Origin: a virus | Reading direction: 5' to 3' (one strand) | Virus record (IMG/VR): IMGVR_UViG_3300020193_000024 | Span: 1-57,504 of that record | DNA length: 57,504 nt | Shown here: positions 3,916 to 45,727 of the stretch, in pieces | Layout of the letters: each line of letters opens with the position of its first letter | Numbering within the stretch: the stretch's first letter is position 1 | Notes under the pieces: model-generated | What the model was told of the DNA's origin: nothing | What the model saw: the letters and a program-made list of their open reading frames with translations, nothing else | Databases searched by the model: none | Program-made: the position numbers and the translations under genes

Positions 3916-4899
3916 CTAACTTTTTACAGCCTCTTCTAATTTGCCGATTACATCTTGTACGTCTGCTGCGAGTTGAGTTACCAGGTTTGACCCTTCAAAC
4001 TTATATCGGGTAATCGGCTGAGGGATATAAGTCTTGGCGGTCATTGTTAACTGGTATTTGAACACTCTCAACTTAATATCACCAGGCTCTGTGTCTAAGT
4101 TATTAGCTTGACCATCTAGCGTGACAATAATTTCCCAGTAGACGCCTCTGACCCTTATATAGGCAACAGGGGAGAATTTTAACCAGATTTGCTCCAGGAT
4201 TTGGTTCATGTCCTCCTGGTACAAAGTCCACAAATACAAGGTGTAAGATACATTCACAGGGATACCACGGGTTACGCCAAACACGGTGTCCTTCTCGAAC
4301 TTCTCTTGCTGCGTAAATCCGTAACCGAAAGCAGGGTTCAGCCAACTCAGATAGCTCTGCGCCTTCTGGTATGTGAAGCGGCTCAAGTCCATGTCAGCGC
4401 CCGAAGAGATAATTGACATCATCGGGAGCTTAATGCGGTCCACCACCAAACTGTTGTCCTTACGCACGTTGTCCTGTAACAACGCCGCTACTGCCTTCTC
4501 CTGTGTTCCCCAAATGATAGGAACGATGTGAGCCTTGCCGTCCTCATCTAAGACTACGACATTGCGGAACAAGTCCACCATAGCCTCATCACAACCCCTG
4601 AGCGCCTTTGAGTAACGATAGATGACCTCTCTGTTGGGGTTCTCTAAGCTGTCGATGATTTGGCCCGTCATTAGCGGGTCACAGTTGGCATGCTGACCGA
4701 TGCCTAGTTTCTTCTTCGTCGGCGGGATTCGCCATGCTTCGGGTGGGTTAGTGGCCACATGCTTCTGTGTGCCCATACCGCCATCGTTACCGCAGTATTG
4801 CTCTACTGGGTCAATGTTTTTGCTGTTTTCCAAGCCAGAAGGTTCTTGACACTGACTGCTCAGCGACGGCTCCTGGTTTAGGTCTTTCATGTTAGTCAT
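3916..4899 (-). CDS. 15: tail terminator/sheath stabiliser (T4 gp15-like)
   Basis: Hexameric protein that caps the tail and holds the sheath. The best match to T4 gp15 is about residues 215-260, NVSYTLYLWTLYQEDMNQIL then EQIWLKFSP (T4: IYELSIFTRYEDDMFQIVEQILPYFQP), followed by a W-E-I-I-V-T-L-D strand and a closing ITRYKF region. The preceding part has S-Y-L-S-W-L-N-P-A-F-G. I placed the start at ATG 4899 because AGGAGC lies before it and it overlaps the upstream HNH stop as ATGA, which implies translational coupling. An upstream in-frame start would run into the HNH gene. 327 aa against 272 in T4. Confidence 0.78.
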   Translation of the reverse strand: MTNMKDLNQEPSLSSQCQEPSGLENSKNIDPVEQYCGNDGGMGTQKHVATNPPEAWRIPPTKKKLGIGQHANCDPLMTGQIIDSLENPNREVIYRYSKALRGCDEAMVDLFRNVVVLDEDGKAHIVPIIWGTQEKAVAALLQDNVRKDNSLVVDRIKLPMMSIISSGADMDLSRFTYQKAQSYLSWLNPAFGYGFTQQEKFEKDTVFGVTRGIPVNVSYTLYLWTLYQEDMNQILEQIWLKFSPVAYIRVRGVYWEIIVTLDGQANNLDTEPGDIKLRVFKYQLTMTAKTYIPQPITRYKFEGSNLVTQLAADVQDVIGKLEEAVKS

Positions 4900-5561
4900 A
4901 TCTGCTCCTGACAAGGTGTGTGTATTTTTTGGACGTAAAAAAGAAATTGTTCTTCGGTTAAGTCCCACTTCATAGTGTTAATTGCCTTATGTACCCATTG
5001 CAAGTTGGACAATTCATTTGTGCCGCCTAGTTTCTTTGGAATCCTGTGGTCTAAAGAAGCGTTTAGTCCAATGGTAATAGGCTCTTTAAGATATGGGCAT
5101 TTGCCGTTTTGTTGGTCAAATAAATCGAGAAGTTCTTTCCATCGTTTTCTATCTTCCCAAACGTCATAAGCTAAACATTTTAGTGTGCAAACTAGGCAAT
5201 TTTTTAACAGATGTATTGACGGAGACTTGCCACATCTAACACAGACTTTGTTCTTAATCCTTTCTTTTCTTGCCCTACTTACTAACGACTTGTATGTCTC
5301 ATAACATTGCTCGCATAAACCGCCTTTGCCATTGGCCGGTTTTTGACATTCTGTGCATAATCCGGTTCGTCTTCTTAATTCACGTCTTTTCCTTCGTCTG
5401 TTATTAGACTTGTCGGTGCATTCCTGGCACCATGCTTTTCCGGGAATTGGCTTGTTTTTTCCACAGGGACATAAGCCATTTAACTTGTGTTTATCCCTCC
5501 ACTTTTTCTCCCTTGCTTTTTTCAATATTAGTGATTGTCCTTGATATTTGCGATTTCTCAT
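4896..5561 (-). CDS. HNH endonuclease with zinc ribbons
   Basis: Probable homing or selfish endonuclease inserted among tail genes. The C-terminal third has the HNH core: CPYLKEPITIG then LDHRIPKKLGGTNELSNLQW with a final VHKAINTMKWDLTEEQF helix. Before it come several Cys-pair ribbons (CPCG, CQEC, CTEC, CEQC, CVRC, CLVC) likely used for DNA contact. The same final helix pattern recurs in the HNH domain at 41150-42862, so the two are probably related. I chose ATG 5561 (MRNRKY): CTATATA lies 5 bases before it. The stop overlaps the gp15 start. Confidence 0.82.
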   Translation of the reverse strand: MRNRKYQGQSLILKKAREKKWRDKHKLNGLCPCGKNKPIPGKAWCQECTDKSNNRRRKRRELRRRTGLCTECQKPANGKGGLCEQCYETYKSLVSRARKERIKNKVCVRCGKSPSIHLLKNCLVCTLKCLAYDVWEDRKRWKELLDLFDQQNGKCPYLKEPITIGLNASLDHRIPKKLGGTNELSNLQWVHKAINTMKWDLTEEQFLFYVQKIHTPCQEQI

Positions 5562-5564
5562 ACT

Positions 5565-5574
5565 ACTATATAGT
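5565..5574. promoter_or_regulatory. palindromic TATA box between divergent genes
   Basis: ACTATATAGT is a perfect palindrome. On the minus strand it gives CTATATA, 5 bases before the HNH ATG at 5561. On the plus strand the same box lies 26 bases before ATG 5601, which has its own AAGG ribosome site. It could serve as a bidirectional late-type promoter. Confidence 0.45.
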
Positions 5575-5600
5575 GTAGACTGCATTTTTTAAGGTACACA

Positions 5601-15320: not shown

Positions 15321-15542
15321 ATGCTGTTGCACATTAGGCGAACGGGAAAAGTTGCCGTGGACGAAATGTGTGTGTGTGGCCACCCGAAATCCCTTCATGG
15401 GAGCCACACACACCACGGCGAGCGTCAGATGCTACGAGTTGCGGAATCTGGCAACTGTTGTGCGGGCGAATGCGCATGTGCCAGATTCCGTTGGGCAAGC
15501 TGGATTTACGATGAGACTAGGCAACAAAAGCACGCTCTCTAA
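15321..15542 (+). CDS. small Cys/His-rich zinc-binding protein
   Basis: 73 aa. The pattern CVCGHPKSLHGSHTHH ... CCAGECACARFRW fits a small zinc-binding module of a type common in phages and actinobacteria (C-x-C-G-H-P-K-S-x-H ... C-x-C-x-x-F). The function is unknown; protein or nucleic-acid binding is likely. Start ATG 15321 follows an AAAGGTTGG ribosome site; ATG 15366 (MCVCGHPK) is an alternative. Its 3' end overlaps the NAMPT gene, on the other strand, by 26 bases. Confidence 0.68.
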   Translation: MLLHIRRTGKVAVDEMCVCGHPKSLHGSHTHHGERQMLRVAESGNCCAGECACARFRWASWIYDETRQQKHAL

Positions 15543-16911
15543 TTTCATCCAGCGTCGTTGTGTACATGACTTTCCCGTTGAGGAAAACGTCCAGAAGATA
15601 GTCAGTTCTCGGGTCGCCCGGCCCGGCAGTCACAAGTTTTGGTTTTCCTCCAGCCACAGGACTTTCAGCCCCTAACACTAGCTTCATTCGGCCATGCTTA
15701 GAGTGCTTCCTTGGGTCTGTCGATGGCTGCTTGAACACCGCTTGTTCAACTCCGTTAATGATTGCACTGGAGCATTTGAAGGCAAATCTCTGTGTGTCTC
15801 TGTTGAGCTTTTGCAATAACCCCCCACCAGAACCGAATGCGATATTGTCTGTGGACCACCGTGCGCTTTTCAAGGCTTGCAAACAAGTCTTGAAAGTTGG
15901 GAAGTCAATGCCGTCGCCCTGGATAACCCTTACCTTGGGATGAAGCATCATGTATCCTTTGGCGTTTTTCTCTGTGCCGAACACCTGCCCTGTCCAGGCA
16001 ATGACTTGTAACAAGGTGTCGGGTAGCTTGCCAGAGTCGGGCCTAATGACTAGGATGCCGTCTCGGGCATACACTTGTTCTTTTAGTGTGTGCCAGGTTC
16101 CCATAATGGCTGAGTTGATGTCGTAGGAATCACTAACGACTGCCACCAAACCAGTTGGGTATTGTTCCAGCATGTTCCTGAACGCATCGTTTTGTCCCTT
16201 ACTGCCCCAGCATGTCATTGTGCTGTGTTCGGCAGCAGGGATTGAGTACCCGGCAACTGGACAAGAATAGTAGTCTCTGGCCACAACTAAAGCTTCCAGG
16301 GTGTCTGTGCCTTTGAAGTTGACCAGGTGGGCACAACCGCCCAACCCGGCAGATTCAACAGAACTCACACCCCGGAAGCCGAAGTCATGTAATTTGAAGT
16401 CTACTAGAAGTGGGTCGCCGGTATCTTCCAAGTAGTTCAGCAGCATGATTTTCATTTCTCGGGACTGAGTAGCGACCGTGCTACCGTACCACACCTGCAC
16501 TAGTAGTGTCTCAAGATAGCTAGTTAGCCAAGCACATGCCGGGTCTGTGTTCTCTACCGTCATCATGACGTTGTTAATGGGAACGCATGTTCCTTCCTGC
16601 ACCGCCTTGATGCGGATAGGCAGGTGCCCGTCGTGTTTCTCTAGGATGTATTCCCACCCTTTGCGGTTGAAAAGAGTCGGGTCATTGAAGTGCTGAGCAA
16701 ATAAGGCGGCAGCTTCTTCAATCTTTTCTTTAGTGACTACCTTGCCCTCAAGGTATTTCTTGAGGATGTATTGCAAGCTAAAGAAACAAGTTTCAGGGAA
16801 AACCGCACCATCCCTGCACTCCATGTAGGAGTACACATACTCTGTGCCAGGCGGGTACTGTCGCCAGTGGGTGACTTTGTAACTGTCAGTTAGCAGGAGC
16901 AGATTGTTCAT
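15517..16911 (-). CDS. nampt: nicotinamide phosphoribosyltransferase
   Basis: Makes NMN from nicotinamide and PRPP, the first step of NAD salvage. 464 aa, close to the 465-490 of the family. The similarity runs end to end: DSYKVTHWRQYPPGTEYVYSY, LHDFGFRGVSSVESAG and NFKGTDT, PAAEHSTMTCWG (active-site loop), VVSDSYDINSAI, RPDSGKLPDT, VIQGDGIDFPT, FGSGGGLLQKLNRDTQRFAF. It overlaps the upstream uracil-DNA glycosylase gene by 26 bases, so they are co-transcribed. In phage KVP40 the homologue is natV. A role in refilling host NAD pools, or in resisting NAD-depleting defence, is inference. Confidence 0.93.
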   Translation of the reverse strand: MNNLLLLTDSYKVTHWRQYPPGTEYVYSYMECRDGAVFPETCFFSLQYILKKYLEGKVVTKEKIEEAAALFAQHFNDPTLFNRKGWEYILEKHDGHLPIRIKAVQEGTCVPINNVMMTVENTDPACAWLTSYLETLLVQVWYGSTVATQSREMKIMLLNYLEDTGDPLLVDFKLHDFGFRGVSSVESAGLGGCAHLVNFKGTDTLEALVVARDYYSCPVAGYSIPAAEHSTMTCWGSKGQNDAFRNMLEQYPTGLVAVVSDSYDINSAIMGTWHTLKEQVYARDGILVIRPDSGKLPDTLLQVIAWTGQVFGTEKNAKGYMMLHPKVRVIQGDGIDFPTFKTCLQALKSARWSTDNIAFGSGGGLLQKLNRDTQRFAFKCSSAIINGVEQAVFKQPSTDPRKHSKHGRMKLVLGAESPVAGGKPKLVTAGPGDPRTDYLLDVFLNGKVMYTTTLDEIRERAFVA

Positions 16912-23249: not shown

Positions 23250-24137
23250 ATGAAACCGCCAAAATGGACCGATACTTACCCGCATGGTACTAAGCAGGGT
23301 GACGAAGAGGTCAAGTTCTTCATCTCACTAGCAAGAAACCCCAAGTTCCAGTGGCGTAGCACTTCCGCTATCGCTAAGGAATCTGGTTTGACCAAAGAAC
23401 GAGTCGAAGAAATCATTCAGAAGTACCACAGAAAAGGCATGATATTCCAGAATCCTAAGAATGATGAACAGTGGGGGTATTGGGAACGAGTGCCAGAAAT
23501 GCTACCTGACGCCAAGAAGTCTATTTCTGGCAAAGACCAGTGCGACCGGGTGAACAAGGCCGTCTCAAAGGATATGGTTTGCAATGATGACCCCTGCATT
23601 AGTGGCGATACCATGATGCAGTTCCAGACGCTCAAGACTAGCTATGGTGTCAATCTCCAGATGAAGGACGAATGGATTCCTATTGCCGATGTGAAACAAG
23701 AATGGCTAGTAACTAGTCCTCCAGTTGCTAGTGTTTACAACCCTGGTTTTGCCAATTTTGCTCCGACTCCTTGCGATGTGGTGCATGTGAACAAGGAAGG
23801 CGACCGCCGTATCTTCTATATCGACGTTGCCAACATGCCTACTGTAAAGGCAGAGAAGTTCATAGAAAACCTCAAGGCTGCGTTCAAAAAGAAAAAGGTC
23901 GAGAACGACCCGAAGATGGCTGAACATGTTTTGAAGATGGAAAAGCTGGAAGAACTCAAGCTAGAGGTTATGGCTAAGAACCCTTGTATTATGGGTGTGC
24001 CAGTTCCAGAACAAGAGTCGATTCCAGGAGCAGAGATGGGCGAAGCAGTACCGGACGACGTTGCGTATTTTCGCAGCAGGCTTTTTACACCACTGAACTT
24101 CCCCAAGGATGCCGGTAAGTCTGACTACAAGATATAA
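23250..24137 (+). CDS. winged-helix protein with portal-like motif
   Basis: 295 aa. Residues 20-85 form a winged helix-turn-helix (EEVKFFISLARNPKFQWRST, AIAKESGLTKERVEEIIQKY, GMIFQNPKNDEQWGYWERV). About residues 190-220 contain DRRIFYIDVANMPTVKAEKF, which closely resembles the F-Y-I-D-V-G-N-L-P-x-x-K-A motif of T4 gp20 portal proteins. The surrounding length and the absence of the rest of the portal argue against a full portal. The C-terminus is helical. Possibly a DNA-binding protein that took up a portal segment, or a diverged relative; function unknown. Ribosome site AAGGAG. Confidence 0.55.
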   Translation: MKPPKWTDTYPHGTKQGDEEVKFFISLARNPKFQWRSTSAIAKESGLTKERVEEIIQKYHRKGMIFQNPKNDEQWGYWERVPEMLPDAKKSISGKDQCDRVNKAVSKDMVCNDDPCISGDTMMQFQTLKTSYGVNLQMKDEWIPIADVKQEWLVTSPPVASVYNPGFANFAPTPCDVVHVNKEGDRRIFYIDVANMPTVKAEKFIENLKAAFKKKKVENDPKMAEHVLKMEKLEELKLEVMAKNPCIMGVPVPEQESIPGAEMGEAVPDDVAYFRSRLFTPLNFPKDAGKSDYKI

Positions 24138-37458: not shown

Positions 37459-37806
37459 ATGAAGCAGGTAATCAAGGGCATAGACATAAGGAAGTTAAAG
37501 CCCGGCACTAAACTTGAGATTTACACTAGACATAGCACTTACTACTTAGAATTTTTGGACTATGGCGGTAAATGTATAGTGTCCGGTGGTGTGCATGTGC
37601 CAGAACCCCTCACGGCTCAATATGTAGGTGCAGCTTACCGCAGAGGCGGTCCTATCAGGCCAGGTTGGATTAGTCCTTTCGTAGGCATGGAATTCGCCCT
37701 GAGTCAAAAAAGAATCCTCAACACTAGCTCCGTCATCAAGGCAAAAATCATAGGCGATGGATGGGACTATGTTATGGATTGGGAAGAAGAAGCTTGTGAT
37801 GCATAA
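37459..37806 (+). CDS. unknown beta-rich protein
   Basis: 115 aa. Begins MKQVIKGIDIRKLKPGTKLE. Small beta-barrel-like strands follow (IYTRHSTYYLEFLDYGGKCI). Unknown. Its 3' end overlaps the convergent LAGLIDADG gene by 35 bases. Confidence 0.58.
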   Translation: MKQVIKGIDIRKLKPGTKLEIYTRHSTYYLEFLDYGGKCIVSGGVHVPEPLTAQYVGAAYRRGGPIRPGWISPFVGMEFALSQKRILNTSSVIKAKIIGDGWDYVMDWEEEACDA

Positions 37807-38353
37807 ATGGCGGCAAACGATGTGCTATAGTCTTGAGGAACCTTATAGACCCCTCTGGCGTTAGTCTGACTCGGTACTTCCCTTTCTGAATCCACACTTC
37901 TGATTCAATGCCGCATGTCCGCAAGTAACTCACAACCACTTCACTACTCTTCTTGCCGAAATTGTGAGTGTTTAGAATCACCCTGTCCTTATCTAGCCTC
38001 CCGTTGTCCCCGTACCATATAGCTAGTCCTATGTCTCTGAGAGGCTCTAGTGAGGAGGCGGTGATAATTTTGTTGCCGTCCTTGTAAAACATTTTCCTGT
38101 AGCAGTTAAACATCGGCCAGCAGCTAGAATGCCAACGGCTGGTGTTAGTCTCCTTTGTGAAAGGACTTTGCGAAGCGAAGTCTTTCAACTCTTTCGCTTT
38201 GTAAGCTAACCATGTCTTATTGCAAGACCGCATAAACAGATAACAGTTCTTGCCTTTGGGCGGCATCACTATAGACGACCCGCCCAGGATGGTCCCCATG
38301 ATTATCTGTATCTGCCAAGGCGAAGGCGTCTTGGGGTTTGTGTGATACGTCAT
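37772..38353 (-). CDS. LAGLIDADG homing endonuclease
   Basis: 193 aa. Two LAGLIDADG-type helices are visible: IQIIMGTILGGSSIV near residue 15 and IGLAIWYGDNGRLDKDR at about 108, with the usual beta strands between (NCYLFMRSCNKTWLAYKAKE; GIESEVWIQKGKYRVRL) and the C-terminal SIRFLKTIAHRLPPFM. The second motif has its acid (Y-G-D-N-G). The first reads L-G-G-S-S in place of the usual L-G-D-G-S, so its catalytic acid seems lost and the enzyme may nick or be inactive. Free-standing; leaderless start after CTAGATA-N4. Confidence 0.78.
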   Translation of the reverse strand: MTYHTNPKTPSPWQIQIIMGTILGGSSIVMPPKGKNCYLFMRSCNKTWLAYKAKELKDFASQSPFTKETNTSRWHSSCWPMFNCYRKMFYKDGNKIITASSLEPLRDIGLAIWYGDNGRLDKDRVILNTHNFGKKSSEVVVSYLRTCGIESEVWIQKGKYRVRLTPEGSIRFLKTIAHRLPPFMHHKLLLPNP

Positions 38354-40875: not shown

Positions 40876-41148
40876 ATGAAAGAACAGCAACCCAAAAAAA
40901 AATTTGAAGTTAAGTTCCGTATCTTGCCTGATGGAACTATGGAAAAAGACGTTTTCATAGACGGAGAACGTCTTGACTATTCCATTAGTATCAACGATTA
41001 TTTGGAGGCATCCAAAATGGGGCCTCAGTTCAAACACGCAGTCCAAGACGATATTGTGAAGCATTTTACTAACTCTGTGTCGGAATTTCTAGGACGGCAC
41101 GTTACTATAGAAGAGATTCAAGAAGCTATCAAAACCGGCTGGATTTAA
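40876..41148 (+). CDS. small conserved-looking protein, unknown
   Basis: 90 aa. Begins MKEQQPKKKFEVKFRILPDG; body alpha/beta (DYSISINDYLEASKMGPQFK; FLGRHVTIEEIQEAIKTGWI). Not recognised. The next gene begins 1 base after the stop. Confidence 0.6.
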   Translation: MKEQQPKKKFEVKFRILPDGTMEKDVFIDGERLDYSISINDYLEASKMGPQFKHAVQDDIVKHFTNSVSEFLGRHVTIEEIQEAIKTGWI

Positions 41149-41149
41149 C

Positions 41150-42862
41150 ATGGCACGACCTAGAACACATAATCTTGAAAATCGAGAGTTCGGCAACTGG
41201 ACAGTGATTCGCTTAGACGACAGTAGGGCCGACAGGTGGATTTGTCGCTGCAATTGTGGGGTTACTAAGTCTATAAATACTGCAAAGTTGCTAAATAGGT
41301 CAACTCTTAGTTGTGCTGAATGTTACAAAAAAAGACGACACAAGTCTGGTAACATTCCGAGCAAGTTATGGCATGCTATTGTTTATGGTGCAAAATCAAG
41401 AAATTTAGACCTAACCGTTAGCCCTGATTATATATGGGGTTTATTCCTGTCCCAGCAAAGCAGGTGCGCTATTTCTGGTCAGAAGCTAGCAATGGGGGAC
41501 ACTGCATCTTTAGACAGAATTGATTCCGCCCGAGGATACGCTCCAGGAAATGTACAATGGGTACACAAGTCCATCAATATGTCAAAAAGAAACTTGGCCG
41601 ATGAATCTTTTATCGACTTGTGTCATGTTGTTTCTGGTCATTGTCGTCAAGAATTAGAAAAAACTAACAGTGTTATCCCTTCGCTTGAGAAGTTTATTTT
41701 AGTGGATGGCTTTCGCATTGTTCCAGACCTGAGAAAGAGCTACAGTTCTTGGATAGTAGATAAACAAAACGGCAAAAAATACCTGGACTGTTTTGGTAAT
41801 TTTGGCAGCCAAGCACTTGGCTGGAATTATCCTTCCTTAGTTGCACGCAATGATGAATTAGCATCGGTTATAACTACAAAAATAGCTCATAGTGACATTT
41901 ACACTGAGTATTACGACAAGTTCGTGAGAATTTTTGCTAGCACCATGCCACAGTTTGAAAAGTTCTTCTTTATAGCTGGAGGAGCTTTGGCTGTGGAAAA
42001 TAGCCTTAAAGCAGCGTTTGACTGGAAGGTTCAGAAGTTAGGCATTCAAAATAACGAAGAAAGAATCAATAAGCTTGACGTTATCCACTTTGAAAATGCT
42101 TTTCACGGAAGAAGCGGATATACTCTTTCTCTAACCAATAGTTCTCCCGTTAAGACAAAATGGTATCCAAAATTTCCCTGGACAAGAGTGCCAATAAGTG
42201 ATTTAGGGCTAGAACAGGTTGAAAAGGCACTAAAAGAGAACAATGCCGCAGCAGTTATCATCGAACCTATTTTGGGCGAAGGGGGTGATATACACAATAC
42301 CAAAGAGTTCCTTGAAACTCTGCGGCGTTTAACTTTAGAATATGAATGCCTGCTTATTTTCGACGAAGTGCAAACATGTTTTTCTACAGGGAAAGCTTGG
42401 TGTTATCAACACCATTCATGCGTTCCTGATTTGATTTCTTTTGCCAAGAAAGTTCAAGTTGGTGGATTTGCCGCAACGGACAGAGTTAATTTGGAAAGTA
42501 ACGTCCTTAACACTCCAGGCCGAATCAACTCGACTTTTGGTGCTGACATTGTGGACTTGGTAAGGGCAACCATTATATTGGAAGTCATTGCTAAAGAAAA
42601 GTTACTCGATAATGCAGCCAAAGTTGGTGAGTATTTTGTCGAAAAACTTAAAGAGTTGGGCTTACTTAATGCTAGAGGTAAAGGCTCGATGATTGCGTTT
42701 GACCTTTCTACTACAGAAGAAAGGGACCACATGCATAACAAGCTGTGTGAAAAGATGCTGTGTCTAAAGTGTGGGGCGAAATCTATTCGATTCCGCCCAC
42801 ACCTGTCATTCTCGGAGGAGGATGCCGATTCTGCTATTGAGATTCTTAAAGCTTGCGCTTAG
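41150..42862 (+). CDS. HNH endonuclease fused to L-lysine 6-aminotransferase
   Basis: 570 aa in one open frame. Residues 1-165 are an HNH nuclease: zinc ribbon FGNWTVIRLDDSRADRWICR...CNCG...CAEC, then CAISGQKLAMGDTASLDRID and NVQWVHKSINMSKRNLADES. Residues from about 173 to the end are a class III PLP aminotransferase closest to lysine-epsilon-aminotransferase: LEKFILVDGFRIVPDL, YLDCFGNFGSQALGWN, AGGALAVENSLKAAFDWK, FENAFHGRSGYTLSLTN, LLIFDEVQTCFSTG (Asp for PLP), DLISFAKKVQVGGFA (Schiff-base Lys at 433/434), PGRINSTFGADIVDLVR and SIRFRPHLSFS. Almost the whole enzyme is present; only its first ~15-20 residues are missing. No internal ATG at the junction. Confidence 0.85.
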   Translation: MARPRTHNLENREFGNWTVIRLDDSRADRWICRCNCGVTKSINTAKLLNRSTLSCAECYKKRRHKSGNIPSKLWHAIVYGAKSRNLDLTVSPDYIWGLFLSQQSRCAISGQKLAMGDTASLDRIDSARGYAPGNVQWVHKSINMSKRNLADESFIDLCHVVSGHCRQELEKTNSVIPSLEKFILVDGFRIVPDLRKSYSSWIVDKQNGKKYLDCFGNFGSQALGWNYPSLVARNDELASVITTKIAHSDIYTEYYDKFVRIFASTMPQFEKFFFIAGGALAVENSLKAAFDWKVQKLGIQNNEERINKLDVIHFENAFHGRSGYTLSLTNSSPVKTKWYPKFPWTRVPISDLGLEQVEKALKENNAAAVIIEPILGEGGDIHNTKEFLETLRRLTLEYECLLIFDEVQTCFSTGKAWCYQHHSCVPDLISFAKKVQVGGFAATDRVNLESNVLNTPGRINSTFGADIVDLVRATIILEVIAKEKLLDNAAKVGEYFVEKLKELGLLNARGKGSMIAFDLSTTEERDHMHNKLCEKMLCLKCGAKSIRFRPHLSFSEEDADSAIEILKACA

Positions 42863-43557
42863 GGTGCTATTCTGTATGGCTTACTTTTGTCCGCATCGTC
42901 GGCTGCATTCTGCTTAGCATGTTGTTGTGCGAAGTGGTCGCTTACTTTCTTCCAAATAGCCGGGAAGTCCTTGTTGCCTTTTAGGTACGGATAGTTCTTG
43001 AAGATGTCCGCCAGTGGTGGCATCTGCATAGGATTCTGTGGGGCTGCTGGCTTAGCTGGTGCTGGAGTGGCAGTTGCTAATGGGTCTGTGCTAGCTGCTT
43101 GAGTGCCTGGCTGCGTTCCAGGGGCTATTCTAGGCTTCTGAGCATTGTCGGGTGGTGGAGTTAGGTTAACGCCGCCACCGTCTTGTTGTACGGTTGGCAC
43201 TGCTGCGCCAGCGTTGGCAAACTTGTCGGCGTACTGAGAGCCTGCCCATTTGTTTTTCAGCTTTTCAGCTTTTGCTGCATCTTGGGTCGAACTTCCATCG
43301 TTCCAGCCAGACCAGTCGCCTGCGGTCTTGAATGCATTCTTTATGCCGCCCCAAGCATTACCTACAGCACCTTTTGCTTTATTCCAAACGCCGCCTAAAC
43401 CGCCAGTTAGTCCTTCGTTAATCTGCCGGTCGGTGGAACAAATAATCCACTCCTCGAATTCGGCTACGTCGATGTTATTCTTGACGACGAATTCGGCCAA
43501 TTTTTGAATGTTCTTGTCACGAACCTGATTAACTAGGAAACTTTCAAAACTCTTCAT
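42859..43557 (-). CDS. tagged Gly/Pro-rich protein, head-packaged candidate
   Basis: 232 aa. Begins MKSFESFLVNQVRDKN (tag-like), followed by a helical part ending INEGLTGGLGGVWNKAKGAV. I-N-E|G is a T4 gp21-type cleavage consensus, so the first 52 residues may be a propeptide. Then come a Gly/Ala/Lys helix that could touch membranes and a Pro/Gln/Thr linker. The short C-terminal domain (DIFKNYPYLKGNKDFPAIWK) is helical. AGGAGGA before the ATG, and a CTAAATA box 21 bases upstream inside the previous stop. Confidence 0.68.
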   Translation of the reverse strand: MKSFESFLVNQVRDKNIQKLAEFVVKNNIDVAEFEEWIICSTDRQINEGLTGGLGGVWNKAKGAVGNAWGGIKNAFKTAGDWSGWNDGSSTQDAAKAEKLKNKWAGSQYADKFANAGAAVPTVQQDGGGVNLTPPPDNAQKPRIAPGTQPGTQAASTDPLATATPAPAKPAAPQNPMQMPPLADIFKNYPYLKGNKDFPAIWKKVSDHFAQQHAKQNAADDADKSKPYRIAP

Positions 43558-43578
43558 CTATCCTCCTGGTTTGTTATA

Positions 43579-43585
43579 TATTTAG
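43579..43585 (-). promoter_or_regulatory. late-type box CTAAATA
   Basis: CTAAATA on the minus strand, overlapping the stop codon of the protease gene, 21 bases before ATG 43557; an AGGAGGA ribosome site lies between. Confidence 0.5.
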
Positions 43586-44379
43586 TCATCGTCGATTATT
43601 TCAATATCTCTCATATACTTGATTTGATAAATTGGCAGTCTAGGAATCTCGTCGTTATTCCAAGCGAAAGAAAGAGCATTATTATTTTGGGTGTTCCAAG
43701 TAGCCAGCCTGTGCATGGGAACGGCGTAGGACATGAGGGGTATTAACTGCTTAGTACCTCCAGGCCCCTCTCTGGCACGAATCATAATCATGATGCCCAC
43801 CACCTTGTAATTGTTGAACAAGGCAGAACCAGAGTCGCCTGGAAGCGTATGAATGGTTGTACGAATCAATTCGGAATGACGACCCAACCTGGTCTTTACA
43901 GAACTCACTTTACCTACATCCAGACGAGGTTCGTCCCCGAGGCCGCATCCTATGCGTAGCACATCATTACCAATGTAAAGTTTTGAATCGAAATCAATTT
44001 CTGCTGTTGGCATTTTCTTGGAACTAACGAATACTCCTACCGCTAGGTCTTGTTCCAGATTGACGTCGTAGAAAGAACAAGGCAGAATCAAGTGGCCTCT
44101 TATGGTAGAATCATTGTATTCGTAAACATGAACGTTAAAATCGCCAGGATGGTTTGCAACATGACCAGCAGTAATAAAAACGTTCTGCCATTCAGAACCA
44201 ACCTTCGTGCTGCGAACGATTACGCCCGTGCCTCCAGTTTCCCTTCCCTCAAGCGCAACCATTACGGTTGGATACAAACACTTATTGTGCAGTTTCAAAT
44301 CAGGGGTGTCGGCAAAACAACGGGTGGGAACAGTTAATAACAAAAGAAAGAGAAGGATAGTGTGTTTACAGATGCTCAT
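43582..44379 (-). CDS. secreted trypsin-like serine protease
   Basis: 265 aa. Signal peptide MSICKHTILLFLLLLTVPTR...CFA|D. Catalytic triad in order: ITAGHV (His), NLEQDLAVGVF (Asp), LPGDSGSALFN (Ser). Chymotrypsin-fold strands are evident (MVALEGRETGGTGVIV; YKVVGIMIMIR). Cysteines (LPCSF, IGCGL) could form a disulfide outside the cytoplasm. The target could be host surface proteins. Leaderless CTAAATA-N5-ATG box. Confidence 0.82.
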   Translation of the reverse strand: MSICKHTILLFLLLLTVPTRCFADTPDLKLHNKCLYPTVMVALEGRETGGTGVIVRSTKVGSEWQNVFITAGHVANHPGDFNVHVYEYNDSTIRGHLILPCSFYDVNLEQDLAVGVFVSSKKMPTAEIDFDSKLYIGNDVLRIGCGLGDEPRLDVGKVSSVKTRLGRHSELIRTTIHTLPGDSGSALFNNYKVVGIMIMIRAREGPGGTKQLIPLMSYAVPMHRLATWNTQNNNALSFAWNNDEIPRLPIYQIKYMRDIEIIDDD

Positions 44380-44458: not shown

Positions 44459-45727
44459 ATGTCAATGCTAGAAGACGCCAAAAAGCAGTTAGAAGCTGCG
44501 TACAAATTTGCAGAAATCGACCCGGAAAGCTGGGAGCGTCTGCAATATCCCCAACGTACTCTTCAATGTGCAATTCCTATGCGCCACGATGATGGCACTC
44601 TCAAGATATACAAGGCGTTCAGGTGTCAGTATGATACCACACTTGGCCCTGGAAAAGGAGGCATCCGGTTTCATCCCGCTGTGGACCGTGACCATGTGGA
44701 GGCTTTGGCCTTCTGGATGACTTTTAAGTGTGCCGTCGTCAAAATCCCCTTCGGCGGCGCAAAGGGTGGAATATCAGTTGACGCCAAATCTTTATCCCAC
44801 CGGGAGTTAGAAAGATTAAGCAAGGCATACATAGCTGCCTACGCCGACTTCATTGGTCCCGACGTAGACATCCCTGCGCCCGATATGTACACCGACGAGC
44901 GGGTCATGGGGTGGATGTATAGCGAATACCGCAAGATTAAGGGTGGACACCCCAAGAACATTGTTACAGGGCTTCCTGTGGCTCTAGGGGGCATCGAAGG
45001 CCGCAACTCGGCGACTGGTTACGGCGGTTACTATGTTCTGGAGAACGTTCTGACCCATAAAGACTTCCCTTTGAAGTTCGACAAACCAATTAGCATAGCC
45101 CTACAAGGTTTTGGCAAGGTGGGTTACTGGTTCGCAGAGAAGTGCATGGGGGCCAAACTGCCTATCAACATTGTGGCTATTTCTAATGAGTATGGCGGCA
45201 CTTATTGCCATGCCGGGCTAACTCCGGTACAATGTCGGCAGTCGTTAGATACAACGGCTGAGAAGGCATGGGGTCAAGGGACTCCAATCAGCAATGACGA
45301 ACTCCTGGGGCTAGATGTCGATGTACTGGTTCCAGCCGCCATTGAGAACGTAATCACGGCAAAAAATGTGGACGCTATCAAGGCTAAGGCGATTCTGGAA
45401 CTGGCAAACGGCCCAATTACAGCCGAAGCTGACTCTATTCTATATGACCGTGGGACTGTAGTGGTGCCGGATATTCTGGCGAATGCAGGTGGTGTAGTTG
45501 TATCCTACTTCGAGTGGGTGCAAAACCGAAATGGTCAAGAAAAGACCATTGAAGAAGTAGATGCCGGGCTTAGAAAGATAATGGGGTACGCAACAGAGCG
45601 AACCCTGTCCAGGTACTTCAAGCATAAGATTAGCATGAGAACTGCTGCTTATGCTCTGGCTTTAAGGAGAATTGCCGCAGCTAACGAATGCCTTGGCAAT
45701 AGGTCTTACTTTCATCAAGGAGTGTAA
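44459..45727 (+). CDS. gdhA: glutamate (Glu/Leu/Phe/Val-type) dehydrogenase
   Basis: Interconverts glutamate and 2-oxoglutarate plus ammonia with NAD(P). 422 aa, full family length. All key parts are there: GPGKGGIRFHP, FKCAVVKIPFGGAKGG (catalytic Lys 102), PDVDIPAPDMYTDERVMGWM (catalytic Asp 142), GLPVALGGIEGRNSATGYGG and the Rossmann ALQGFGKVGYW (about 215-224). It is a complete metabolic enzyme 1.6 kb from a lysine aminotransferase, whose co-substrates are the same 2-oxoglutarate and glutamate. TGAGGA is a distant ribosome site. Its stop overlaps the next ATG. Confidence 0.93.
   Translation: MSMLEDAKKQLEAAYKFAEIDPESWERLQYPQRTLQCAIPMRHDDGTLKIYKAFRCQYDTTLGPGKGGIRFHPAVDRDHVEALAFWMTFKCAVVKIPFGGAKGGISVDAKSLSHRELERLSKAYIAAYADFIGPDVDIPAPDMYTDERVMGWMYSEYRKIKGGHPKNIVTGLPVALGGIEGRNSATGYGGYYVLENVLTHKDFPLKFDKPISIALQGFGKVGYWFAEKCMGAKLPINIVAISNEYGGTYCHAGLTPVQCRQSLDTTAEKAWGQGTPISNDELLGLDVDVLVPAAIENVITAKNVDAIKAKAILELANGPITAEADSILYDRGTVVVPDILANAGGVVVSYFEWVQNRNGQEKTIEEVDAGLRKIMGYATERTLSRYFKHKISMRTAAYALALRRIAAANECLGNRSYFHQGV

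What the first reader, a model, noticed from the sequence alone, without database searches (positions are those of the whole stretch)
41150..42862. HNH homing nuclease fused in frame to a lysine 6-aminotransferase
One open frame carries a complete zinc-ribbon HNH nuclease (1-165) and then an almost complete class III aminotransferase closest to L-lysine 6-aminotransferase, without an internal start codon at the join. The HNH part resembles the HNH at 4896-5561. A selfish nuclease seems to have landed at the 5' end of a metabolic gene and kept it in frame. The PLP lysine, PLP aspartate and substrate regions look intact.
Basis: partly seen in the sequence, partly recalled or inferred. Interest (0 to 1): 0.84.

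Follow-up and report, generated by a model that had tools for sequence, protein, structure and literature searches.

The report
Nuclease fused onto phage lysine aminotransferase
In a huge-phage genome fragment, a DNA-cutting HNH nuclease gene sits exactly at the start codon of a lysine-aminotransferase-like metabolic gene and is read through into it as one protein; a second, distant phage carries the same fusion and about 30 others carry the enzyme without it, so this is a real and lasting gene fusion that shows how a selfish nuclease can tie itself to a useful enzyme.

Summary
One frame (41150-42862, 570 aa) encodes a complete zinc-ribbon HNH nuclease (about 1-173) followed by a class III aminotransferase nearest L-lysine 6-transaminase (LAT). 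It is not an artefact. A second phage contig (L005, 85 kb) has the same fusion: HNH 42% and LAT 63% identical to the window, with no ATG/GTG/TTG near its join. About 30 phage LATs lack the HNH. In two of them LAT starts one base after the stop of the same upstream gene, exactly where the HNH starts here. Fused LATs form one clade (100/100) inside a phage-LAT clade. Both HNH domains keep 34 of 35 conserved positions. Both LATs keep all eight catalytic or substrate residues checked, yet share substitutions at positions invariant elsewhere, which suggests a changed enzyme rather than a dying one.

The architecture recurs. The same HNH family is fused flush to the start codon of a nucleotidyltransferase in four contigs and absent in three. 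There, flanking genes and the enzyme give conflicting trees, as expected if nuclease and enzyme moved together. Closest published cases are HNH-Rnl2 fusions in jumbo phages and the ShiLan element (HNH in another frame). I rate it a new variant of a known kind. Homing activity is inferred, not shown.

The parts
41150..41668 (+). Zinc-ribbon HNH nuclease domain (residues 1-173): zinc ribbon C34/C36/C55/C58, HNH core about 81-158 (SLDRIDS...GY..GNVQWVHK..N)
   Evidence: phrog_3322/1035/374; 34 of 35 family-conserved columns kept; AF2 pLDDT 91.6; nearest solved fold PacI HNH 3ldy and Gme HNH nickase 4h9d, weak
41642..41683 (+). Junction (residues 165-178): end of the HNH C-terminal helix running into the former LAT N-terminus; aligned with unfused L089 (MNKVISVLDKHIL / TNSVIPSLEKFIL) the LAT start codon corresponds to ACT (Thr)
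   Evidence: no in-frame ATG/GTG/TTG 41621-41701; alignments; helix 151-173 in the model
41675..42862 (+). Class III aminotransferase domain, L-lysine 6-transaminase family (residues 176-570 plus stop); PLP Lys K433, D405, Q408, E377, R321, N460, T462, R547
   Evidence: tree
40876..41148 (+). Small conserved gene (90 aa, ends TGWI*) directly upstream; its stop lies one base before the HNH ATG here and one base before the LAT ATG in L003 and L004
39475..40845 (-). Upstream syntenic gene (SWIM-like C-terminus), conserved beside the locus in HNH-free relatives
42859..44379 (-). Two downstream genes on the other strand (unknown 232 aa; trypsin-like protease 43582-44379), conserved in syntenic phages
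44459..45727 (+). Glutamate dehydrogenase; present in 6 of 25 LAT-carrying phage records, beside LAT in those inspected; plausible partner that regenerates 2-oxoglutarate
4896..5585 (-). Second HNH gene, free-standing, whose TGA stop overlaps (ATGA) the ATG of the gp15-like tail gene; unfused comparator; absent at this place in the relative G001
3916..4899 (-). gp15-like tail sheath stabiliser gene whose true ATG lies flush with the HNH stop

Best explanation
A mobile zinc-ribbon HNH endonuclease gene came to lie exactly at the start codon of a LAT-type aminotransferase gene in an ancestor of this huge-phage lineage, taking over the enzyme's translation start one base behind the upstream stop codon. 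The HNH stop and the LAT start were lost, so ribosomes now make one polypeptide: N-terminal HNH nuclease, a helical linker, C-terminal PLP aminotransferase. Shown from sequence: the fusion, the HNH-free sites, a single fusion origin on the LAT tree, no conserved internal start, and conservation of both active sites. Inferred: both activities are present. The HNH cuts or nicks DNA and promotes its own inheritance (homing or exclusion of co-infecting phages). Being fused makes the nuclease hard to delete without losing the enzyme, and lets the enzyme travel with it. The aminotransferase probably works with a changed substrate, possibly coupled to the neighbouring glutamate dehydrogenase through 2-oxoglutarate.
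For: Same fusion in L005. HNH-free LAT at the same syntenic place in L003 and L004 with stop-N-ATG spacing, conserved block without HNH in L092, L117, L089. Fused LATs one clade 100/100 within the phage-LAT clade. HNH of the two fusions as one clade not rejected, p-AU 0.93, likelihood 66 better than the free search. HNH 34/35 conserved columns kept in each fusion. All eight LAT catalytic/substrate residues checked kept in both. No start codon near the join in L005. Second case: HNH fused flush at the start codon of a nucleotidyltransferase in four contigs, absent in three; its HNH under purifying selection, dN/dS about 0.09-0.20; flank and enzyme trees conflict as expected for joint movement. 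Unfused intermediate state in the same window at gp15.
Against: No activity data for either domain. Only two HNH-LAT fusions found. In the LAT case three neighbouring genes also pair window with G001, so vertical inheritance explains it; movement is seen only in the nucleotidyltransferase case. The HNH tree is poorly resolved. dS between the two LAT fusions is saturated, so selection cannot be measured there. A GTG at 41702 could in principle start a separate LAT in the window phage.
Confidence: 0.7

Rival explanations
1. Domesticated module: the HNH was kept not as a selfish homing nuclease but as a working part of the enzyme, for example placing the aminotransferase on DNA, or using the obligate dimer of the aminotransferase to pair two HNH nickases into a double-strand cutter used against competing phages.
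For: Long retention of both domains in two diverged phages with shared LAT substitutions at otherwise invariant positions; continuous helix between domains; published suggestion that HNH-Rnl2 fusions in jumbo phages attack competitors (PMC7824862).
Against: No structural or biochemical sign of coupling; the HNH keeps exactly the conservation of free-standing mobile relatives; the parallel nucleotidyltransferase fusions behave as mobile; AF2 gives low confidence for the HNH in the full-length model.
Confidence: 0.25
2. Two proteins from one frame: the nuclease and the aminotransferase are made separately, LAT from an internal start (GTG 41702) or by cleavage.
For: GTG at 41702 with a weak purine stretch upstream; in the nucleotidyltransferase fusions the enzyme's own ATG is kept at the join.
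Against: The GTG lies inside the conserved ILVDGF motif and is GTT in L005, which has no ATG/GTG/TTG from codon 148 to at least 211. Selection has kept the frame open across the join in both phages.
Confidence: 0.12
3. Assembly or sequencing artefact that joins two neighbouring genes.
For: Single metagenome contig; no reads available.
Against: Independent contig L005 with the same join at 57% overall identity; no relative has separate adjacent HNH and LAT genes.
Confidence: 0.02
4. Intron or intein: the HNH region is removed from RNA or protein before the enzyme forms.
For: HNH nucleases are common in phage group I introns; reading through an element in frame recalls the ShiLan element (PMC11855218).
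Against: No Rfam match anywhere in the window at gathering threshold and no group I/II intron at relaxed threshold around the gene; no upstream exon, since the element sits at the very 5' end of the gene; the HNH uses the gene's own frame and start position.
Confidence: 0.03

Closest known systems
HNH-Rnl2 RNA ligase fusions of jumbo phages (Iyer et al. 2021, PMC7824862)
   Same: N-terminal HNH endonuclease domain fused in frame to an enzyme in jumbo phages
   Different: The partner is an RNA ligase, not a metabolic PLP enzyme; the passages read give no HNH-free sites, start-codon position or mobility evidence
ShiLan element in phage DNA methylase (Arsenault et al. 2025, PMC11855218)
   Same: Insertion with a zinc-finger HNH of PacI-like fold that leaves the host gene frame open; patchy distribution, thought to home
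   Different: There the HNH is read in a different frame from the host gene and lies inside it; here it is in the same frame and at the very start codon, giving one polypeptide
Free-standing mob/HNH homing genes of T4-like phages (Edgell et al. 2010, PMC2988022)
   Same: HNH nucleases inserted between or into phage genes, patchy among relatives; inheritance by co-conversion
   Different: They are separate genes; when inside genes they split them (mobE in nrdA, mobA in gene 60) rather than fuse in frame to the 5' end
L-lysine 6-transaminase (LAT, TIGR03251; M. tuberculosis 2cin)
   Same: Fold, PLP lysine and all eight catalytic/substrate residues checked
   Different: 399 bits against cut-off 520.8; substitutions at Q241, G278, G333, N334 (M. 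tuberculosis numbering) and a one-residue deletion shared by both fused proteins; N-terminal HNH

Membership tests
HNH nuclease (phage zinc-ribbon type, phrog_3322-like) | Zinc ribbon cysteines and HNH core motif conserved | tested here: met
   34 of 35 columns conserved in at least 85% of 70 relatives are kept; only M145 to S differs
HNH nuclease (phage zinc-ribbon type, phrog_3322-like) | DNA cleavage activity | not testable with these tools
   needs purified protein
Homing endonuclease | Patchy presence with intact empty sites in relatives | tested here: met
   L003, L004, L092, L117, L089 lack it at the same place; same for the nucleotidyltransferase case
Homing endonuclease | Movement between genomes independent of flanks | tested here: inconclusive
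   Shown by conflicting trees for the nucleotidyltransferase fusions; for HNH-LAT three neighbours share the same sister pair
Homing endonuclease | Cleaves the HNH-free allele near the insertion site | not testable with these tools
   needs a cleavage assay
L-lysine 6-transaminase (TIGR03251) | Curated score cut-off 520.8 bits | tested here: not met
   399 bits; unfused phage relatives 511-516, also just below
L-lysine 6-transaminase (TIGR03251) | PLP lysine and substrate residues (K300, D271, Q274, E243, R170, N328, T330, R422) | tested here: met
   all present in window and L005 (LAT residue numbers printed there are one too low)
Class III aminotransferase (PF00202) | Whole-domain profile match above gathering score | tested here: met
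   242.7 bits against 30.5, profile 14-402 of 403
Group I intron or intein | Intron core RNA, or intein splicing domains with flanking exteins | tested here: not met
   no Rfam intron match; the element is at the 5' end with no upstream extein, and no Pfam splicing domain

The most novel reading that the evidence does not exclude
Start-codon-flush, in-frame HNH fusions are a distinct mobile lifestyle: the nuclease inserts at the exact start codon of tightly packed phage genes, takes over their translation start, fuses to a metabolic enzyme, and then homes with the enzyme as cargo, so that phage metabolic genes are spread and protected from loss by a nuclease they physically carry.
Probability: 0.3. 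Interest if true: 0.75.

Novelty: new variant of a known kind. Interest (0 to 1): 0.58.

Why it matters
Phage homing nucleases are usually seen as separate genes or as splicing elements that avoid harming the host gene. Here one has become part of a metabolic enzyme, with HNH-free sites, an independent conserved copy and a second enzyme family showing the same architecture. If the nuclease is active, this is a simple way for a selfish gene to make itself indispensable and for auxiliary metabolic genes to be spread between phages by DNA cleavage. The empty and occupied alleles are defined to the base, so the idea can be tested directly.

Tried and rejected
Assembly artefact: rejected by L005. 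Intron or RNA element: Rfam at gathering and relaxed thresholds gave only chance snoRNA matches. Decay of the LAT half: rejected, since all catalytic residues checked are kept while a truly decayed unfused copy (L233) has lost the PLP lysine. Horizontal movement of the HNH-LAT unit between window and G001: neighbour genes are mosaic (SWIM-like gene and methyltransferase closest to other phages; trypsin, 108-aa gene and LAGLIDADG gene closest to G001), so not claimed. HNH tree: quick trees did not pair the two fused HNHs, but the constrained tree was better and not rejected. dN/dS for window against L005 failed because dS is saturated. A combined HNH plus LAT alignment for folding was dropped because HNH rows were misaligned onto the LAT part. 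Plasmid and isolate-phage collections gave no further fusion.

Full report
What is there. The frame 41150-42862 on the + strand opens with ATG one base after the stop of a 90-aa gene (40876-41148) and encodes 570 residues without a stop. Residues 1-173 match phage HNH endonuclease families (phrog_3322 to residue 173; phrog_1035; phrog_374). Residues 176-570 match class III aminotransferases (PF00202), best the L-lysine 6-transaminase model TIGR03251 (E 1.7e-119) though below its cut-off (399 against 520.8 bits), and M. tuberculosis LAT.

HNH-free sites. L003 (IMG/VR 3300037264_003213) and L004 (LR756511.1, a 595-kb phage) carry the same upstream small gene ending in TGWI-stop, then one base, then the ATG of a complete LAT gene of 417 and 420 aa. 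In the window the same TGWI-stop and one base are followed by the ATG of the HNH. L092 (532-kb phage), L117 and L089 keep larger parts of the same gene block (LAGLIDADG gene, SWIM-like gene, small gene, LAT, and in L092 and L117 also trypsin and glutamate dehydrogenase), without the HNH. About 30 distinct phage LATs were recovered, none fused, and no HNH of this family lies within 5 kb of them. In several relatives other small genes sit between the small gene and LAT with their own starts and stops (L089, L093, L095, L096, L115), so this junction accepts insertions. L129 has the small gene but no LAT there at all.

A second HNH-LAT fusion. L005 (IMG/VR 3300020200_000014, 85 kb) encodes a 581-aa protein with the same architecture: 57% identical to the window protein overall, 42% in the HNH and 63% in LAT. 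It lies next to homologues of the same neighbours (SWIM-like gene, trypsin), on the other strand relative to them, and its record lacks the small gene. Its join contains no ATG, GTG or TTG from codon 148 to at least 211; the only candidate in the window, GTG 41702, is GTT there. A true translational fusion is therefore conserved in two diverged phages, which also excludes an assembly artefact. The L005 frame is open further upstream and reads a second zinc ribbon, though without a usual start codon.

History. On a tree of 58 LATs the two fused enzymes form one clade (100/100) inside a phage clade (100/100) apart from cellular LATs, on a long stem of 0.55. The two fused HNHs were not paired in quick trees, but a tree that holds them together is better by 66 log units and is not rejected (p-AU 0.93). 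One fusion event is the simplest reading. Aligned with the unfused L089 protein (MNKVISVLDKHIL), the window reads TNSVIPSLEKFIL: the old start codon corresponds to ACT, so the join is at the start codon.

State of the two halves. Of 35 HNH columns conserved in at least 85% of 70 relatives, the window keeps 34 and L005 34. The HNH alone folds with confidence (mean pLDDT 91.6); its nearest solved structures are the PacI HNH enzyme 3ldy and the Gme HNH nickase 4h9d, both weak by E-value. In LAT, K300, D271, Q274, E243, R170, N328, T330 and R422 (M. tuberculosis numbering) are all kept in both fusions. Of 87 near-invariant LAT columns the window keeps 76 and L005 73; eight of the losses are at the same positions in both (among them Q241, G278, G333 and N334, with a one-residue deletion at 279). 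Unfused phage LATs keep nearly all (84 or more in each but one). The exception, L233, has lost the PLP lysine and is a decayed copy. LAT residue numbers printed are one too low; K433 and D405 follow. I read this as functional change of the fused enzyme, not decay.

The same architecture elsewhere. Among HNH relatives fetched, a second enzyme is fused behind the same HNH family: a nucleotidyltransferase (PF01467) in contigs L245 (same as L046), L246, L247 (same as L052) and L251, while L248, L249 and L250 have the enzyme alone. In L249 the upstream gene ends AATTAAT-ATG-GAAAATTGG with the enzyme's ATG; in L246 the sequence is TATTAAT-ATG followed by the HNH, and the enzyme's ATG is kept at the join. 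The HNH again starts exactly where the enzyme started. Three upstream genes place unfused L249 beside fused L251 (96/95), but the enzyme places L251 with fused L246 and L247 (98/96; 91% and 87% identity against 70% to L249). L251 holds only the first 56 aligned residues of the enzyme, so this rests on a short stretch. It is the pattern expected if nuclease and enzyme were copied together into a new phage. The HNH in these fusions is under purifying selection (NG86 dN/dS 0.09-0.20). Inside the window the HNH at 4896-5585 shows the unfused counterpart: its TGA stop overlaps the ATG of the gp15-like gene, and G001 has no HNH there.

How it most likely works. Shown: fusion, HNH-free alleles, single origin on the LAT tree, intact active-site residues, no conserved internal start. 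Inferred: the HNH cuts or nicks DNA and favours its own inheritance; the fusion gives it the enzyme's translation start and makes deletion costly; the aminotransferase is active, perhaps on a changed substrate. Glutamate dehydrogenase is found in six of 25 LAT phage records, and next to LAT in the ones inspected, as in the window; this fits recycling of 2-oxoglutarate but was not tested.

Compared with what is known. Published N-terminal HNH fusions in jumbo phages involve Rnl2 RNA ligases (PMC7824862). The ShiLan element leaves a methylase frame open, but its PacI-like HNH is read in another frame (PMC11855218). T4-type mob genes stay separate or split their host gene (PMC2988022). No paper in the held library joined homing nucleases with lysine aminotransferase. 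I therefore rate it a new variant of a known kind. Limits: pattern-based scans give lower bounds, only two HNH-LAT fusions are known, subscription literature is not covered, and no activity has been measured.

Noticed in passing
L245, L246, L247, L251 (fused); L248, L249, L250 (unfused): Same HNH family fused flush at the start codon of a CTP_transf_like nucleotidyltransferase; flanking-gene and enzyme trees conflict, suggesting joint movement.
   Followed up: yes
window 4896-5585 (-) and 3916-4899 (-): Free-standing HNH whose TGA stop overlaps the ATG (ATGA) of the gp15-like tail gene; absent at that place in G001. The mechanical GTG start of the gp15-like ORF at 4968 is too far upstream.
   Followed up: yes
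window 44459-45727 (+): Glutamate dehydrogenase, 65-70% identical to homologues found in 6 of 25 LAT-carrying phage records.
   Followed up: partly
window 37772-38353 (-): LAGLIDADG_2 endonuclease (PF03161, E 8e-24) conserved in the syntenic phages, apparently a long-term resident.
   Followed up: no
window 23250-24137 (+): T4-like portal match covers only part of the portal profile; gene may be split or interrupted.
   Followed up: no
window 15517-16911 (-): Nicotinamide/nicotinate phosphoribosyltransferase (PF18127/PF04095), a likely NAD-related phage gene.
   Followed up: no
L233: Unfused phage LAT that has lost the PLP lysine (K300 to D) and a stretch near the active site: probably a decayed or repurposed copy.
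   Followed up: partly
L005 2791-2988: The fusion frame is open upstream and reads a second zinc ribbon, but has no ATG/GTG/TTG; a rare ATT start after AAGGTG is possible.
   Followed up: partly
L240 4822-5994 (-): G001 carries a single open frame with two HNH core domains in tandem.
   Followed up: no
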